Source of the DNA: Planococcus sp. MB-3u-03
Lineage (GTDB): Bacteria > Bacillota > Bacilli > Bacillales_A > Planococcaceae
NCBI RefSeq assembly: GCF_002833405.1
Contig: NZ_CP025135.1
Span: 3,267,501 to 3,331,500 of the forward strand
Reading direction: 5' to 3'
DNA: 64,000 nt
Below, piece after piece: positions 7,684-42,847 of the stretch. Made by a program: the position numbers and the translations under genes. The notes beneath the pieces were generated by a model that ran no database searches, was not told where the DNA came from, and saw only the letters and a program-made list of their open reading frames with translations. Within the stretch, counting starts at the first letter, position 1, and each line of letters starts with the position of its first letter.

Positions 7684-8298
7684 TCAGCGGATCAATTCCA
7701 TGAAATGCATGAGAATCTTTGCCGTTAATCCCCAAATGACGCGGTCTTCGTATAAATAGAAGAATTCATCCACTTGCCGCGCACGCCAGCTGTAGTTTTC
7801 GCCGCCGGCAATCAAGTCATACGGAAAACTTTCCTCCGGCTGAATATCGAAATCAATGCGGTACACGCGCGGCTCGTTTTCAAGGAAAAACTTCAGCGGC
7901 ACCGTGAAGACGCTGTCGACTTCAGGCGGATTCGGCTTAAAATCCGTGTCAGGATCGATAAAGCCCGCAAACGAATAGACAATCATGCCAAACGGCGAGA
8001 CGATGTAATCGAGCGGAAACACATTGCTGATCGCCTCTTTGCGGATGCCAAGCTCTTCCATCGTTTCACGCAAAGCTGTTTCTTCCTCATCTTCATCCCC
8101 GTGATCGATGCGCCCACCCGGAAAACAAATCTCCCCAGGCTGGCGCCTCATTTCAAACGAACGCACTTCAAACAGGATATGGACGCCGTCTTCTTTTTCA
8201 ATCAATGGGAGAAGAATCGCATATTTCGAGAAATCCCGGTTGCCGAGTACTTCAGGCACCCGCCCTTTGACTTTTTCCAAAATCTTTTCCGGTTCCAT
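7684..8298 (-). CDS. Nudix hydrolase, probable CoA pyrophosphatase
   Basis: The 204-residue protein has a complete Nudix box (from GGRIDHGDEDEEE to RETMEELGI, about residues 60-82), which binds the divalent metal and cleaves a nucleoside diphosphate linked to another group. The preceding LFEVRSFEMRRQPGEICFPGG matches the sequence that marks the CoA/NudL subgroup, so coenzyme A or its oxidised or acylated forms are the likely substrate. The ATG has AGGTG five bases upstream. It precedes ilvE on the same strand, about 115 bp away, with a separate promoter in between. Cytosolic housekeeping enzyme. Confidence 0.88.
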   Translation of the reverse strand: MEPEKILEKVKGRVPEVLGNRDFSKYAILLPLIEKEDGVHILFEVRSFEMRRQPGEICFPGGRIDHGDEDEEETALRETMEELGIRKEAISNVFPLDYIVSPFGMIVYSFAGFIDPDTDFKPNPPEVDSVFTVPLKFFLENEPRVYRIDFDIQPEESFPYDLIAGGENYSWRARQVDEFFYLYEDRVIWGLTAKILMHFMELIR

Positions 8299-8402
8299 GC
8301 CATCACCTCGACTTTCTTTCTTCCTATCTTACCAAATAATCGAAGTGCCCGGCCTTTCAATCGCTCCGGAAAGATGAAAAATCCGAATTCCCTTGCCATC
8401 TA

Positions 8403-8432
8403 TTGGCGAACGCACTGCGCCTTCGCTACAAT
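8403..8432 (+). promoter_or_regulatory. Promoter of the laccase-domain gene
   Basis: TTGGCG-N18-TACAAT on the plus strand. The -10 box overlaps the upstream ATG at 8431, which argues for the downstream TTG start at 8452. Confidence 0.55.
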
Positions 8433-8451
8433 GGGAGCGGAGGGGATAGAC

Positions 8452-9210
8452 TTGAACCGAAAAACATATATCGACAACGATTCCTATATCGCGGGCATGA
8501 CCATAAAAGACCCGCAAACGAGCGGCGATAATAACTTGGCGCTCCACGCCGGAACCCATCGCGAGCATTCACTCGAAAACCGGGAAGCTTTGCTTGCTTC
8601 ACTTGGCCACACCCTCGATGAACTTGTCTGCGCCAATCAAACCCACAGCAAGCATTTCCGAAAAGTGACCCGTGCAGATGCAGGCAAAGGCGCCCGCATT
8701 CTAGACGATGCGATTGCGGATACCGATGCGCTCTATACGCGCGATACAGGACTCGTGCTCTCGAGTTTTGCCGCTGATTGCGTGCCCGTAACTTTCTATC
8801 ACGTAACGGAAGAGTTGGTCGGTGCCGTACATTCCGGATGGCAAGGAACCGTAAAGGAACTCGTGCCGCACTTGTTTGCCCATTTAACCGCCAATGAAAA
8901 CTGCGCGCCGGAAGGATTCCGCGTCCAGATCGGCATGTCGCTCAGCCAGGAGAAATTTGAAGTGGATGAAGACGTCTACGTGAAATTCAAAGCACTCGGC
9001 TATGCCGACCCGTTCATCGAATTCAACGAAGAAACCGGGAAATACCATATCGACAATCAACTCACGGTCAAAACCCAGCTGGAACGCGCAGGCATTCCAG
9101 CCGAATATATCGACATCGACCGAAGCTGCACCTTCAAGAGTCCAGACGGCTTTTCCTACCGCGAAGACAGACAATGCGGCCGCCATATGGCTTATATCGT
9201 CAAGAAATAG
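8452..9210 (+). CDS. Laccase-domain protein (YfiH/PgeF family), purine nucleoside phosphorylase type
   Basis: A 252-residue protein of the family once called multicopper polyphenol oxidase and now known to include purine nucleoside phosphorylase/adenosine deaminase activity; the family also acts in muropeptide editing in enteric bacteria. The family motifs are present: CANQTHS (about residue 62), SSFAADCVPV with the metal-binding Cys, GAVHSGWQGT with the metal-binding His, and a late Cys (RSCTFKS). Start choice: TTG at 8452 has GGAGGGG six bases upstream, and a -10 box covers the alternative ATG at 8431. A much longer open frame upstream is antisense to the Nudix gene and is not credible. Monocistronic, ended by a hairpin at 9211. 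Confidence 0.88.
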   Translation: MNRKTYIDNDSYIAGMTIKDPQTSGDNNLALHAGTHREHSLENREALLASLGHTLDELVCANQTHSKHFRKVTRADAGKGARILDDAIADTDALYTRDTGLVLSSFAADCVPVTFYHVTEELVGAVHSGWQGTVKELVPHLFAHLTANENCAPEGFRVQIGMSLSQEKFEVDEDVYVKFKALGYADPFIEFNEETGKYHIDNQLTVKTQLERAGIPAEYIDIDRSCTFKSPDGFSYREDRQCGRHMAYIVKK

Positions 9211-9329: not shown

Positions 9330-9510
9330 CTAGAGACGGAGCGGAAATGGCTGACTCCTGGGGGACCGTGCGGGCTGGCGAGACAAATGTGCCATGCTCT
9401 TCGGCACATTGGCTCAACACCCGCCCCATTCCCGGGCAGCTGAAAACGCGACGTCCTGTCGCATCAGCTGCATGACTCGCATCCTGCGAGCCCAAAGCAG
9501 CCATTGAAGC
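9330..9510. repeat. GC-rich intergenic element with three small hairpins
   Basis: A non-coding block between the laccase-domain gene and the helicase gene. It contains three perfect short hairpins: TGTGCC...GGCACA at 9388-9408, GCGACGTCCTGTCGC at 9448-9462, and CTCGCATCCTGCGAG at 9476-9490. Its start (GACTCCTGGGG) resembles the start of the element at 44294-44400 (GACTCCTGTGG). This looks like a diverged member of the dispersed intergenic repeats of Planococcaceae. The rest of the gap to 9579 shows nothing recognisable. Confidence 0.5.
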
Positions 9511-9579: not shown

Positions 9580-12500
9580 TCAAATCATCAAAATCTCCCG
9601 AATGTCCTCTTCACTCATCGATTGCACGGCTTCTGAACCGGATTGGATCATCTCATCCACCAAATCCTGCTTGCGCAGCTGCAGGTCGTACATCTTCTCT
9701 TCAATCGTTCCTTTCGCCACTAAACGCAGCACTTGCACTTCCCGCTTCTGCCCCATCCGGTGTGCTCGGTCCGCTGCCTGCTGTTCGACGGCCGGGTTCC
9801 ACCACAAATCATACAGGATGACCGTATCGGCCCCCGTCAAATTGAGCCCGGTCCCGCCCGCTTTCAAGGAAATCAAAAACAGGTCCTCCTCGCCTTCGTT
9901 AAAGCGGTCGCATAATTCCACGCGCTCTTTTGGCGGCGTCGAGCCATCTAAATAGAAATACGACCTTCCTGAGCGCAAGAGCGACTGGCCGATGATATTG
10001 AGCATGCCCGTAAACTGTGAGAACACCAGCACACGGCGGCCGGTCAAGCGCGCCTCTTCCAGGATTTCCAGCAATTGCTCGAACTTCGCCGAGCCACCGG
10101 AGTAGTCTTCCACAAACAATGATGGGTGGCAGCATAATTGCCGCAGACGCGTCAGTCCCGCAAGAATGCGGATGCGGTTTTTGCGCATGCTATTGTCGCG
10201 CAGATGCTTCAAGGCTTCATGACGCAGTTCCGCGAGATACGCCGTGTACAGTTTCTTCTGCTCTTCGTGGAGTTCGGAATGTTCGATGCGCTCGATCTTT
10301 TGCGGCACTTCCCCAAGCACTTCCGCTTTCGTCCGGCGCAACAGGAACGGCCGCACGCGCTTGGCGATATCGGCGTTGCGCAGTTCCGCAAACTGGCTGC
10401 GGTCCGGAAGCAGCGCCGGAAAGACGACGTGGAAAATCGACCACAATTCATCGAGCGAGTTTTCAATCGGCGTCCCAGTGAGCGCGAACCGATGCCGTGC
10501 GTTCAGCTCTTTCACGGCTTTGGCGGTTTGAGTCGCCGGATTTTTAAAAGCTTGCGCTTCATCGAAGAAAATCGTATGGAAGGTCCAATCTTTATATGCC
10601 CCCCGGTCCATCCGCAGCGCCGGATAAGAAGTGATATACACATCACCGGGCTCTTTCAAGGCTTGCGTCCGCTTTGCTTTCGGGCCGTCGACGATGACCG
10701 TCTGGATCTCCGGTGCAAAGCGCTCGAATTCGGCTTGCCAATTGTACATGAGCGAAGAAGGCGCAACGATCAGCGCCGGTTCATCGCTCTTGCGGATGTC
10801 TTCCAGCACCGATTGCACAAAAGCGATGCTCTGGACGGTTTTTCCGAGTCCCATCTCATCTGCCAATATGCCGCCGAATCCGTACTTCGCCAGCAAACGG
10901 AACCAGCTGAAGCCGCGTTTTTGATAATCCCTTAAAATGCCTTCAAAATGCGCCGGCAATTGTTGTGATTGCGTCCACGGATGGTGCAGCTCTTTCAGCA
11001 AGCGCGCAAATTCCGTCCCTGTCTCCGATAATTCGTGCTGTTCGAGGCTCCCGGCAAGCCGCATGCCTTCCAGCAGCGGAATGCGCTGAACGCGTTCAAA
11101 ATTATCTTCATCGATGTTCATGACAGCCAAATACTCCTCAAACGCCGCCATGCCCGGAGTTTCAAGCGACATTAACGTACCGTTAGGGATGCGAAAATAG
11201 CGCTTTTTCTCCCGAATGGCGCGGATAATCCCCCGTAATTCTTCTTCCGGTATGCCCCCGAGATCAAAGCGGAACTCCAGCCAATCGGTCCGGTCTTTCG
11301 GCAGATTGACACGGATTTTCGGCCCCGGCAAGGTTTTTTGGATGCGCATTTTCACCGAAGTTGTCGCATAGACCTCGAGCCATTCTTCGAGCAGCGGCAC
11401 CGTATCGTAAAGGAAATCATATTCCGCTTCTTCGTCCTGGAGATAGAAACCGCCGTCCGTTTTCGTCAGCCGCCCCGACGCCATCAAGTCCATGATGGCC
11501 CGTTCTTTTTCGAGCTGGCGGAACACACCAGGATACTGCCGGTATGTTCCGTCGGGCTCTTCGCACGGATTGATGATGAGCTGTCCGTAATGAAATTCAA
11601 GTCCTGCAAGCAGTCGGCTGCGCACGCGATCGAGATACAGTTTCGCGCGCAGCGGCGTTTCCCCGATTTTCTCAATCGCCTTTTCAGTCACGATGACCGG
11701 CCCGAGCTTTTCCAGCCCCGGCAAGACGACTTTCATCATATGGGCGACTTGGCTTTCCTCGACCGCCAGCTCCTCGCCTGCCCCTTGCATCAATTCCTGC
11801 AAGCCTGAGAGACGCTTCATATCGGCACTGGCCGGCTGGACAATCGATTCTTCCGTCAAGGCGACGCCGTACTTCGGAAAAATTTGAAAACGCTCCAAAC
11901 CACGGACGATCAAGCGGTATCCGCTAGTGCCGTGGTCTAGTCGAAACGACACTGGCAGTGTATCCGTTACGTGAAATGGCAGCACTTCCCCGAGTGGATT
12001 TTCAAATTTGGCATGCGTTATTTCGCGCAACAATGGCAACAAGCGCTCCCAATCGCTTGCGGAAACGAGCAATTTTCCGTTTTCATCCGGCTGGGGATTG
12101 CTTTTATCGAGCACTTGAAGCAGCTCCAGGACCGGTTGTTCGAGTGCATGGCGGCTTGGGTCGTATGGAATCGCTGCGGTCTCCTCGTATTGGCCATTCG
12201 ACAGGGCCGAGACGAAACGCAGGGGATCCCTTACATTTTTCAAGATGGCCGTGCCGCTCCGGAACGTCAGTACCAATTGCTCTTTGCCTCCACTGCGTAT
12301 GGCTGCTTCCACGTGATACGGCACGCGCCGGTCGAAGCGATGCAGCCGGGCAGAAGGCTTGTCGTCTTCTTCAAACAAGCCGAACATCTGCTCAGCTAGT
12401 GGACGCTCCCGTTGGCCAAGCTCTTCCGCGGCGATCATCACCGCTGCAATGTGATGGCAATATGTATGGATGAATCCGACAGGCGGGCAGCTGCATTCTG

Positions 12501-12693
12501 CATGAATGGTCCCGGCTTGTGAACGGGTTAGCTCGACGTAGAATGAGCTGCGCCCTTCGACAATAGCTGTTATGGACTGGTCATTGGCTTCTGTGATATT
12601 GACTTTTCCGGCCATTTGAAACGCTTGGCCTTTTTTATAGGCAGCCTGGCCGCATAATTTGCGGATATGTTTATCGCTGATCCAAAATTCCAT
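9580..12693 (-). CDS. SNF2-family ATPase/helicase with SWIM zinc finger (YwqA-like)
   Basis: A 1037-residue cytosolic DNA-dependent ATPase. An N-terminal SWIM zinc finger (CxC...CHH at about residues 67-85) and an SNF2-associated region of about 450 residues precede the motor. Motor motifs: Walker A DEMGLGKT (about residue 611), Walker B/DEAQ box FFDEAQAFKNP (about 713), LTGTPIENSLDELW, and the arginine-finger motif ADRAHRMGQKREVQV (about 976). Such proteins remodel protein-DNA or RNA polymerase complexes; the close relatives are Bacillus YwqA and RapA-like enzymes. Start at 12693 because AAAGGGG is seven bases upstream and the earlier ATG lacks a site. No methyltransferase or nuclease neighbour suggests a defence island. 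Confidence 0.92.
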   Translation of the reverse strand: MEFWISDKHIRKLCGQAAYKKGQAFQMAGKVNITEANDQSITAIVEGRSSFYVELTRSQAGTIHAECSCPPVGFIHTYCHHIAAVMIAAEELGQRERPLAEQMFGLFEEDDKPSARLHRFDRRVPYHVEAAIRSGGKEQLVLTFRSGTAILKNVRDPLRFVSALSNGQYEETAAIPYDPSRHALEQPVLELLQVLDKSNPQPDENGKLLVSASDWERLLPLLREITHAKFENPLGEVLPFHVTDTLPVSFRLDHGTSGYRLIVRGLERFQIFPKYGVALTEESIVQPASADMKRLSGLQELMQGAGEELAVEESQVAHMMKVVLPGLEKLGPVIVTEKAIEKIGETPLRAKLYLDRVRSRLLAGLEFHYGQLIINPCEEPDGTYRQYPGVFRQLEKERAIMDLMASGRLTKTDGGFYLQDEEAEYDFLYDTVPLLEEWLEVYATTSVKMRIQKTLPGPKIRVNLPKDRTDWLEFRFDLGGIPEEELRGIIRAIREKKRYFRIPNGTLMSLETPGMAAFEEYLAVMNIDEDNFERVQRIPLLEGMRLAGSLEQHELSETGTEFARLLKELHHPWTQSQQLPAHFEGILRDYQKRGFSWFRLLAKYGFGGILADEMGLGKTVQSIAFVQSVLEDIRKSDEPALIVAPSSLMYNWQAEFERFAPEIQTVIVDGPKAKRTQALKEPGDVYITSYPALRMDRGAYKDWTFHTIFFDEAQAFKNPATQTAKAVKELNARHRFALTGTPIENSLDELWSIFHVVFPALLPDRSQFAELRNADIAKRVRPFLLRRTKAEVLGEVPQKIERIEHSELHEEQKKLYTAYLAELRHEALKHLRDNSMRKNRIRILAGLTRLRQLCCHPSLFVEDYSGGSAKFEQLLEILEEARLTGRRVLVFSQFTGMLNIIGQSLLRSGRSYFYLDGSTPPKERVELCDRFNEGEEDLFLISLKAGGTGLNLTGADTVILYDLWWNPAVEQQAADRAHRMGQKREVQVLRLVAKGTIEEKMYDLQLRKQDLVDEMIQSGSEAVQSMSEEDIREILMI

Positions 12694-12770
12694 AGCGGCC
12701 CCTTTCTTCTGCGTGATGATGTCGTACATTCATTATCCGGCATGCCGCGTTCGTCTTCAAGCGGAGGCGC

Positions 12771-12853: not shown

Positions 12854-13303
12854 ATGGCTCGTGCCCATCAAAGCATATTCATCCAAGCGCCGATCGACGA
12901 AGTGTTCCAGTTCGCCAAGAAACCCGGAAACTGGACGAGTTTTTACAATCATTTATCTAAACCGGAAAGAATCGAAGGCACCGGCGAAGCAGGCACTGAA
13001 GTCGAGACGGTATTTTCCATTGTCGGCTTGCGCTTCCCGGTGACAATCAATGTGGTGCGCTGTGAACGCAGTGGCGAGGAAGGATTTTGGGAAGGCATCA
13101 TCACCGGCAGCTTTATCGCCCACCAAAAGAGCCATTACCGTTCGATGGAAGGCGGAACGGAAGCGGTCTTCGAACTGGAAATCGATCTGCCCGACAGCGC
13201 TTTCGACCGTTTTACCGAGCGATTGGTCTACGACCGGCTGGAGAAGAACACACTTCGCCATACGCTTGAAAATCTCAAAGCGACTTGTGAATTGGAGCGG
13301 TGA
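12854..13303 (+). CDS. SRPBCC (START-like) family protein
   Basis: A 149-residue protein with the START/Bet v1-like ligand-binding fold pattern: an N-terminal strand with 'IFIQAPIDEVFQFAKKPGNW' as its hallmark, a beta sheet, and a long C-terminal helix (about residues 115-145). The family binds hydrophobic ligands or acts as polyketide cyclase/dehydrase. No catalytic assignment is possible here. The ATG has GGGGGAG nine bases upstream and a clear sigma-A promoter. It stands alone, divergent from the SNF2 gene and ended by a strong terminator at 13385. Confidence 0.8.
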   Translation: MARAHQSIFIQAPIDEVFQFAKKPGNWTSFYNHLSKPERIEGTGEAGTEVETVFSIVGLRFPVTINVVRCERSGEEGFWEGIITGSFIAHQKSHYRSMEGGTEAVFELEIDLPDSAFDRFTERLVYDRLEKNTLRHTLENLKATCELER

Positions 13304-13384
13304 ACCCTAGTTGCCCAAAGGATAAATCAACTGAGCTTGGAAAGAAACTAGCGATCATCACTGGCTCGCTTATTGAACTAATTG

Positions 13385-13421
13385 AAAACCCGTATGCTAA
13401 ATTCCGGCATACGGGTTTTTT
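13385..13421 (+). terminator. Terminator of the SRPBCC gene
   Basis: A perfect 13-bp stem AAAACCCGTATGC with a 9-nt loop and a T6 tail. Confidence 0.85.
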
Positions 13422-13429
13422 GGGCATTA

Positions 13430-13544
13430 AAAAACACCCCGCATAAATGCGGGATGTATCGATAGCTGCGGCGTATCAGGCCACGCTCCACAACGTGTTC
13501 CATAAAGGAATGCCTGTCCGTCTTATGCAGCTTAGCTCATCGCG
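13430..13544 (-). ncRNA. Unidentified structured small RNA (about 115 nt)
   Basis: On the minus strand a sigma-A promoter (TTGACA-N17-TATTGT, 13551-13579) points at a compact foldable sequence ending in the terminator CCCGCA-TAAA-type hairpin plus T6 (13429-13454). Predicted fold: an outer stem AGCTGC/GCAGCT, an internal loop, a stem CAGGC/GCCTG, then a three-way junction with hairpins TTCC/GGAA and CACG/CGTG. There is no ORF in it. The next gene downstream on this strand is beyond a convergent gene, so it is more likely a stand-alone RNA than a leader. I do not recognise the class. It lacks the core sequences of SAM, TPP, FMN, purine, lysine, T-box, SRP, 6S or tmRNA as I know them. Confidence 0.6.
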
Positions 13545-13550
13545 TAGTTA

Positions 13551-13579
13551 ACAATAGCCTATACACCATGCCCTGTCAA
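13551..13579 (-). promoter_or_regulatory. Sigma-A promoter of the small RNA
   Basis: TTGACA (perfect) and TATTGT spaced by 17 bp on the minus strand, with the expected start near 13544. Confidence 0.65.
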
Positions 13580-13747
13580 CTCCAAAAATCCGAAGCCTCT
13601 ACCTCTTCCTTTAAAACTGACCCCTAAAAATTATTCAGAATTGATACTTTTAACTAGGTCAATTACTTGCTACAGTAGTTCAAAACTACACGGCATTGCT
13701 GGAGGGCCTTGCGCCTGGCGGATGTCCAAGAAAGAAGGAATCGTTTC

Positions 13748-14284
13748 ATGCAAAAAACTACGACTTATTCCAGTTCCAAAACCTATGATTTGATCATCAC
13801 TTCGATGCTCATCGCACTTGTTTTTGTGGCAACGATGTTGCTCAACATCCGCCTGCCGATTGCGGCAAATGGCGGACTGGTCCACCTTGGCACGACGATG
13901 CTGTTCACGGCAGCCCTGTTGTTCGGGCCGAAAAAAGGCGCCATCGCCGGAGCAGTCGGAATGGGGCTCTTCGATTTAGTATCAGGCTGGACGCTATGGG
14001 CACCGATCACCATCATCGCACGCGGCTTGCAAGGCTACCTGGTCGGGAAAATCGCCTGGTCGGGCGGGCGCGGCGGCGAAAGCCTTGGATTCAACATCCT
14101 GGCTGCGGCGCTTTCCATTCCGGTCATGGTCGCTATCTACTATATCGGTGAAGCGATTATCTTCAGCAGCTGGATCATTCCGGCAGCCTCCATTCCAGGA
14201 AACCTGGTGCAAAACGCAGTCGGATTGGCACTCGCCATTCCAGTTGTTGCAGCGTTGAAGAAAACACCTTACTTCAGAAATTAA
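13748..14284 (+). CDS. ECF transporter S component (COG4720-like)
   Basis: A 178-residue integral membrane protein with about five to six hydrophobic helices, glycine-rich loops (GPKKGAIAGAVGMGLFD) and the C-terminal GNLVQNAVGLALAIPV pattern of substrate-binding S components of energy-coupling-factor vitamin transporters. The subgroup imports vitamins or precursors such as riboflavin-like compounds or thiamine pyrimidines. The substrate cannot be told from sequence alone, and no known riboswitch is visible in the 170-bp leader. The shared EcfA/EcfT module is not in this window. The start at 13748 has AAGGA seven bases upstream; an ATG 13 codons earlier lacks a site. A bidirectional terminator follows. 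Confidence 0.85.
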   Translation: MQKTTTYSSSKTYDLIITSMLIALVFVATMLLNIRLPIAANGGLVHLGTTMLFTAALLFGPKKGAIAGAVGMGLFDLVSGWTLWAPITIIARGLQGYLVGKIAWSGGRGGESLGFNILAAALSIPVMVAIYYIGEAIIFSSWIIPAASIPGNLVQNAVGLALAIPVVAALKKTPYFRN

Positions 14285-38141: not shown

Positions 38142-38303
38142 AAAAAAACCCCTTCTTCTTTTCGACAAGAAGAGGAGTGGTTTCGTACGTTCGATCGCCT
38201 CTCTTATCTCTGTACGCGCAGTACAAGGAATTAGCACAGTGCCGCGTTGCGGTCTGCTGCTTTGACGTCTCAGGGCCAGTCCCTCAGTCAATCTCGATAA
38301 GAT
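38142..38303 (-). promoter_or_regulatory. SAM-I riboswitch (S-box) controlling the Opp/Dpp-type operon
   Basis: On the minus strand the aptamer (38303 to 38201) shows the S-box core: CTTATCGAGA, GACTGAGGGACTGGCCC, GACGTCAAAGCAGCA, GCTAATTCC and the closing AGAGATAAGAG. A terminator follows (about 38142-38176: CTTCTT/AAGAAG stem, then T7). High S-adenosylmethionine should stop transcription of the operon. Confidence 0.95.
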
Positions 38304-42700: not shown

Positions 42701-42847
42701 CAAAAAAGCCTCTTTCAATAGGAAAGAGGCTTCGACCAATTTCTTATCTCTCAGAATGAACACATTCTGCAGGAATTAGCACCTCTCATGAACATGATGG
42801 TTGCTGGACGTCATAGGGCCTGTCCCTCAGTCTCTCTGGATAAGTTA
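42701..42847 (-). promoter_or_regulatory. SAM-I riboswitch (S-box) controlling the amino-acid ABC/mmuM operon
   Basis: Minus-strand aptamer (42847 to 42741) with CTTATCCAGAGAGACTGAGGG, GGCCCTATGACGTCCAGCAACC, GGTGCTAATTCCTGCAG and the closing GAGAGATAAG. The terminator hairpin GCCTCTTT/AAAGAGGC plus T6 is at 42701-42730. All S-box core elements are recognisable. Confidence 0.96.

What the first reader, a model, noticed from the sequence alone, without database searches (positions are those of the whole stretch)
13430..13544. Stand-alone structured small RNA of unknown class
The minus strand shows a full transcription unit with no gene: a consensus TTGACA/TATTGT promoter, a compact fold with nested stems and a three-way junction, and a terminator with T6. 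I cannot match it to any riboswitch or housekeeping RNA I know. The nested stems involve GC-rich complementary arms, so the fold is unlikely to be chance.
Basis: partly seen in the sequence, partly recalled or inferred. Interest (0 to 1): 0.72.

Follow-up and report, generated by a model that had tools for sequence, protein, structure and literature searches.

The report
Known small RNA BsrF, conserved copy
The stretch is a real, free-standing small RNA gene, but it is not of unknown class: it is the Planococcus copy of BsrF, a small RNA first described in Bacillus subtilis, whose molecular targets I could not find.

Summary
Window 13434-13543 on the minus strand matches Rfam family RF01411 (BsrF) over its full length, 61.8 bits against a gathering score of 50, the only copy in this genome. 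Promoter-like site, three-way-junction fold and intrinsic terminator are as described. The fold beats 200 of 200 shuffles and is supported by covariation over 89 distinct relatives (0.576 against 0.183 in shuffles). Relatives lie beside unrelated genes (12 loci incl. the window), which points to a trans-acting RNA and not a leader. In B. subtilis, BsrF is reported as CodY-activated and Hfq-associated (PMC3574147, passages). I found no CodY-box enrichment upstream and no shared start-proximal complement of the invariant 5' tail in six genomes. Best reading: an ordinary member of a known sRNA family, acting in trans through its invariant unpaired segments. The tail carries an AUG with a stop within six codons (149 of 149, partly fixed by my pattern): curious, untested. 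Interest is low.

The parts
13574..13579 (-). -35 hexamer TTGACA
   Evidence: sequence
13551..13556 (-). -10 hexamer TATTGT
   Evidence: sequence
13434..13543 (-). BsrF small RNA (RF01411, model positions 1-113 of 113)
13534..13543 (-). 5' tail GCGAUGAGCU, unpaired in the Rfam model; first nine bases identical in 47 of 47 distinct Rfam-found relatives; holds an AUG at its 4th base, followed here by AGC UAA
13464..13532 (-). outer and inner stems enclosing a three-way junction with two hairpins (extent read from the minimum-energy fold)
   Evidence: fold; covariation
13482..13497 (-). second junction hairpin with the conserved UGUG at its tip (in this copy the minimum-energy fold pairs the first U and leaves the loop GUGG)
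   Evidence: fold
13434..13457 (-). intrinsic terminator hairpin, 10 pairs, loop of 4
13429..13433 (-). T run after the terminator stem (five T, a sixth at 13434 is in the stem)

Best explanation
It is the Planococcus copy of BsrF (RF01411), a free-standing small RNA of about 110 nt with its own promoter and terminator. It acts in trans. SHOWN here: family match, conserved fold, single copy, unrelated neighbours at different loci. REPORTED in print for B. subtilis, not tested here: activation by CodY and co-purification with Hfq. INFERRED: the RNA touches its partners (mRNAs, or a protein) through the invariant unpaired parts, namely the 5' tail GCGAUGAGC, the UAAG internal-loop segment and the UGUG hairpin tip, while the covarying stems hold these in place. 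I put pairing with mRNAs at about 55% and a mainly protein-binding role at about 35%. The confidence below is for 'a real BsrF-family sRNA that acts in trans', not for either of those two modes.
For: Rfam full-length match 61.8 bits, cut-off 50, E 6.6e-9 in the 64-kb window. One copy in the genome; of 14 control genomes only B. subtilis rings. Matches in 52 of 261 genomes of the family, 4 of 19 genera; the 46 own-genus rows printed all have one, but 189 unmatched rows were not printed. In a draw from the class, 54 of 398 genomes and 17 of 145 genera. Covariation on 26 representatives: 0.380 against 0.179 shuffled and at most 0.159 when slid. On 89 distinct model-aligned rows: 0.576 against 0.183 and at most 0.133 when slid (that alignment leans towards the structure). 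Tip-hairpin stem score 5.23 against 2.86, sd 0.09, with shuffled partner arms (149 sequences; relatedness is not kept by that shuffle). Neighbours differ over the window and 11 loci scanned, and in 15 of the 21 loci the nearest ORF of 90 aa or more downstream of the RNA is on the opposite strand. PMC3574147 (passages and part 1 of section 9 seen) lists SR2/BsrF in yobO-csaA, 7.75-fold enriched with Hfq, and calls it CodY-activated.
Against: No transcript data for this organism. CodY-box matches upstream of 147 relatives follow the shuffled control, apart from two sequences with 2 mismatches against 0.5 expected, so CodY control is not supported by motif. No shared start-proximal complement of the 5' tail in six genomes. 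The Rfam score is modest (61.8 bits, against up to 110.6 elsewhere in the class). RNAalifold's own consensus on the 26 representatives did not include the second junction hairpin; I put it in by hand, and there its cells pair in only 51.3%, 79.0% in the model alignment.
Confidence: 0.93

Rival explanations
1. A cis-acting leader or riboswitch that controls the next gene on the same strand.
For: A compact junction fold followed by a terminator resembles a riboswitch platform. In 6 of the 21 loci the next ORF downstream is on the same strand.
Against: Here the next long minus-strand ORF (9580-12729) begins about 700 nt past the terminator with a convergent plus-strand gene between; only mechanical minus-strand ORFs of 50 and 102 aa lie nearer. 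In the other 15 of 21 loci the next ORF downstream is on the opposite strand. Neighbours share no Pfam family and differ even within the own genus (window, L002, L020).
Confidence: 0.02
2. Its function lies in very short translation at the 5' end: AUG at base 4, then a stop at codon 3 or codon 6, perhaps engaging ribosomes as a start-stop element.
For: 149 of 149 distinct sequences read Met-Ser from base 4; 112 then stop, and 37 read a 5-residue peptide closed by UAA. Codon 3 was left free in the search pattern.
Against: No room for a Shine-Dalgarno sequence. AUG and UAAG were fixed by my pattern for the named loci. L046, outside this set, has a shifted frame. Stops at codon 3 may follow ancestry only; I made no test against that.
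Confidence: 0.03
3. An antisense RNA to the neighbouring genes.
For: It lies between two plus-strand genes on the opposite strand.
Against: It overlaps neither (12854-13303, and the ECF gene starting at 13709 or 13748), and the fold is kept where other genes flank it.
Confidence: 0.02

Closest known systems
BsrF / SR2 small RNA, Rfam RF01411
   Same: Full-length covariance-model match above the gathering score; the same 5' tail and junction fold as the relatives; free-standing, with its own terminator.
   Different: Own-genus copies printed mostly have TTGACA or TTGACT as -35 box, while B. subtilis-like copies have TTGCAT or TTGCAA before an extended -10 (TGnTATATT); both read by eye. Locus differs: SRPBCC-type and ECF riboflavin S-component genes here, a tRNA_bind-domain gene (csaA-like) in B. 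inaquosorum.
trpB ncRNA motif, Rfam RF04312
   Same: Sub-threshold match 31.4 bits at 13378-13451(-).
   Different: Far below its cut-off of 59; the match only joins two adjacent terminator-like hairpins, so it was rejected.

Membership tests
BsrF (RF01411) | Covariance-model score at or above the curated gathering score of 50 bits, full length | tested here: met
   61.8 bits, model positions 1-113 of 113
BsrF (RF01411) | Conserved secondary structure shared with the family | tested here: met
   Covariation over 26 and over 89 distinct relatives that include the window copy L001
BsrF (RF01411) | Independent transcription unit (own promoter and terminator) | tested here: met
   Sequence features only: promoter-like site and intrinsic terminator; no transcript data
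BsrF (RF01411) | Transcription activated by CodY (reported for B. subtilis) | tested here: inconclusive
   Best CodY-box match upstream of the window copy has 5 mismatches; the distribution over 147 relatives follows the shuffled control, and four B. subtilis-like copies have 4 to 6 mismatches, so the motif test has little power
BsrF (RF01411) | Association with Hfq (reported for B. subtilis, PMC3574147) | not testable with these tools
   Needs co-immunoprecipitation
Cis-regulatory leader / riboswitch | Conserved position upstream of one gene family on the same strand | tested here: not met
   Next ORF downstream is on the opposite strand in 15 of 21 loci and in the window. 20 flanking proteins scanned, from the window and 11 loci: 18 have Pfam hits and share no family, 2 have none; only 2 of the 6 same-strand downstream ORFs were among them

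The most novel reading that the evidence does not exclude
The invariant 5' tail is not an mRNA seed but a contact for the translation machinery or for a dedicated protein: an AUG at base 4 closed by an in-frame stop within six codons, presented by a rigid three-way junction with an invariant UGUG tip, making BsrF a ribosome- or protein-directed RNA and not a classical antisense regulator.
Probability: 0.06. Interest if true: 0.55.

Novelty: already known. Interest (0 to 1): 0.13.

Why it matters
It closes the finding: the RNA gene is real and belongs to a described family. The side result is a set of 149 distinct relatives with a covariation-supported structure and a short list of invariant unpaired segments, which tells an experimenter which bases to study in B. 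subtilis 168 if the targets of BsrF are to be found.

Tried and rejected
CodY box upstream (15-letter consensus recalled from memory): 147 of 149 distinct sequences had at least 120 nt upstream; best-mismatch counts follow a control of block-shuffled dinucleotides (2 or fewer mismatches 2 against 0.5; 3: 4 against 5.1; 4: 30 against 25.3). Rejected as evidence.

Exact complement of the 5' tail in six genomes: 59 sites, 6 of them the sRNA gene itself, against 12 for the pattern read backwards. I have no test for this excess; I suppose it comes from common codons (the site reads Glu-Leu-Ile-Ala in one frame), and an excess of real targets is not excluded. I looked at 56 of the 59 sites (three of the sRNA copies were not fetched). 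4 of 56 lie near a candidate start with a Shine-Dalgarno-like stretch (L178, L179, L203, L219); three of them look like starts inside a longer ORF or antisense to one, and L203 (one Exiguobacterium genome, 32 nt before a start) is the best. No gene family seen in more than one genome was established, but I did not compare the proteins. Shorter or mismatched seeds were not tested.

Pairing of the 5' tail with the linker before the terminator: 87 distinct linkers from 145 of 149 sequences beat their own shuffles (3.11 against 2.80, sd 0.08), but shuffled tail blocks do as well in 71 of 300 cases. Not supported.

Conserved peptide inside the RNA: longest closed ORFs vary widely, 46 of 149 have one of 18 or more codons. 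Rejected, apart from the start-stop remark.

trpB and STnc430 Rfam matches are below their cut-offs and were rejected.

Rows dropped: 3 of 29 representatives (L102, L112, L151) were left out of alignment A1; 6 of 149 sequences lacked a 3' anchor; L046 did not match my pattern and was added back by hand; 91 of 173 loci were given; of the 21 loci, proteins of 11 were scanned. The model R1 was built and not used. The 'order' search gave the same 261-genome tally as the family search and adds nothing. The start of the ECF gene was set to 13748; the mechanical ORF starts at 13709.

Full report
OBSERVATION. On the minus strand there is a TTGACA-17-TATTGT promoter-like site and a 10-pair terminator hairpin with a T run, and between them an RNA that folds into nested stems with a three-way junction. 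The 110-nt RNA folds better than 200 of 200 dinucleotide shuffles, z -3.36. Promoter-like and terminator-like sites are about twice as common in this 5-kb stretch as in shuffles (7 against 3.9, 12 against 6.4), so those two features alone prove little. Two plus-strand genes lie on either side, an SRPBCC-type protein (Pfam PF10604; the fold-class name is recalled) at 12854-13303 and an ECF riboflavin transporter S component (PF07155) from 13709 or 13748 to 14284.

IDENTITY. A covariance search against Rfam gives RF01411, BsrF, at 13434-13543(-), 61.8 bits against a gathering score of 50, all 113 model positions, E 6.6e-9 for the window. The genome has one copy.

DISTRIBUTION. In the family of the window's genome, 52 of 261 genomes and 4 of 19 genera have a match, 49 of the 261 over the cut-off. 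The 46 own-genus rows printed all match; 189 unmatched genomes were not printed, so I cannot exclude own-genus genomes without it. In a draw from the class, 54 of 398 genomes and 17 of 145 genera match, 53 over the cut-off. Both searches used stricter filters that lose weak matches. I name the window's genus from own-genus contigs whose lengths equal those of named records: G100 contig of 102796 bases, Planococcus salinarum; G108 contig of 197009, Planomicrobium; G116 contig of 3513248, Planococcus sp. 107-1. In the same way G471 (318658 bases) is Exiguobacterium sp. s124, so I call its genus g34, with L050 and L203, Exiguobacterium.

STRUCTURE. Of 173 loci, 172 gave a pattern match, 149 distinct over the first 100 bases. 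On 26 of 29 representatives the structure scores 0.380 for covariation, shuffled mean 0.179, best slid version 0.159, with 24 of 28 pairs showing a change on both sides against 15.2 in shuffles. RNAalifold's own consensus on these 26 (23 pairs, 17 with both sides changed) has the outer and inner stems and the terminator but not the second junction hairpin; I placed that hairpin by hand, and its cells pair in 51.3% because its register shifts between lineages. On 89 distinct rows aligned by the model the score is 0.576 against 0.183, 89.4% of cells paired, that hairpin 79.0%; this alignment was fitted to the structure and leans towards it. Tested without the model, by anchoring on its TGTG, the hairpin pairs far better with its own partner arm than with shuffled ones (5.23 against 2.86, sd 0.09, 149 sequences); that shuffle does not keep relatedness.

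INVARIANT UNPAIRED PARTS. In 47 distinct sequences found by the Rfam model, not by my pattern, bases 1-9 (GCGAUGAGC) are identical in 47 of 47 and base 10 is U in 46 of 47; the Rfam model itself rewards these bases. The Rfam model shows this tail as unpaired. The UAAG segment (each base in 46 or 47 of 47; the exception is L046, shifted by two bases) and the UGUG hairpin tip (26 of 26) are the other fixed elements. I infer that these are contact surfaces. A minimum-energy fold of the window copy pairs bases 2-5 with a stretch before the terminator, but a control did not support this across relatives.

CONTEXT AND MODE OF ACTION. In 15 of 21 loci the nearest ORF of 90 aa or more downstream of the RNA lies on the opposite strand, in 6 on the same strand (ORFs chosen mechanically). 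Twenty flanking proteins from the window and 11 loci were scanned, 18 with Pfam hits: TENA/THI-4 (L002) and NlpC/P60 and Na/H exchanger (L020), both in own-genus genomes; pseudouridine synthase and HSP90 (Exiguobacterium, L050); a tRNA-binding domain protein (B. inaquosorum, L120); AIM24 and sulfate permease (L058), and others. This argues for a trans-acting RNA. PMC3574147 (passages and part 1 of section 9 seen) places SR2/BsrF between yobO and csaA in B. subtilis, reports 7.75-fold enrichment with Hfq, and describes it as activated by CodY; its wording also counts BsrF among sRNAs with identified targets, but names none in what I saw. PMC4634765 (passages) lists a BsrF homologue in B. amyloliquefaciens FZB42; it equates SR1 with BsrF and gives AhrC as the target of that RNA, whereas PMC2784878 (passages) lists bsrF and SR1 as separate RNAs and PMC3574147 does the same. 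PMC5848175 (passages) only uses the bsrF terminator in vectors. The original CodY paper (Preis et al. 2009) was not held; I know it only through citations. My searches were 579 papers, 30 listed, an acronym shared with a synchrotron; 1153, 5 listed; BsrF with sRNA: 7 of 7 listed; 26, 20 listed; 8 of 8; none; RF01411: none. In them I saw no named mRNA target that is clearly of BsrF; papers outside this open-licence library may name one.

TESTS THAT DID NOT SUPPORT A MECHANISM. CodY boxes are not enriched upstream. Exact 10-nt complements of the 5' tail number 59 in six genomes, six of them the gene itself, against 12 for the reversed control pattern; 4 of the 56 sites examined lie near a candidate start, one of them convincingly (L203), and none was shown to be shared. 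So which partner the tail meets stays open.

A CURIOSITY. AUG at base 4 is followed by AGC and then by a stop at codon 3 in 112 of 149 distinct sequences and at codon 6 in the other 37. Much of this was fixed by my search pattern; codon 3 was not. L046, outside the 149, does not fit. It may be a by-product of ancestry and of the UAAG segment.

VERDICT. A true, well-conserved small RNA gene, an ordinary member of BsrF. Low interest as a discovery.

Noticed in passing
38201-38303 (-) and 42741-42846 (-): Two SAM riboswitches (RF00162), 69.8 and 86.8 bits.
   Followed up: no
9428-9490 (+): A Bacillaceae-1 RNA (RF01690), 42 bits against a cut-off of 35, between the long ORFs 7774-9210(+) and 9580-12729(-).
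   Followed up: no
13388-13421: A second hairpin (ACCCGTATGC...GCATACGGGT with a T run on the plus strand) lies just beyond the sRNA terminator, probably the terminator of the SRPBCC-type gene; together the two hairpins give a sub-threshold Rfam trpB match.
   Followed up: partly
L074, L058, L083: Records titled Chryseobacterium sp. ISL-80, Paenibacillus sp. BSR1-1 and Paenibacillus bovis carry the BsrF pattern; the Chryseobacterium label in particular may be a misnamed Bacillales genome.
   Followed up: no
L203, 1501-1510: In one Exiguobacterium genome the exact complement of the sRNA 5' tail lies 32 nt before a start codon with a good ribosome-binding site; a single case, possibly chance.
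   Followed up: no
13535-13540 (-): AUG-AGC, then an in-frame stop at codon 3 or 6, at the 5' end of 149 of 149 distinct BsrF sequences collected by pattern.
   Followed up: partly
G000, G410, G493, G351, G310, G612: The 10-mer AGCTCATCGC occurs 59 times in six genomes against 12 for its reversed control; unexplained, perhaps codon usage.
   Followed up: partly
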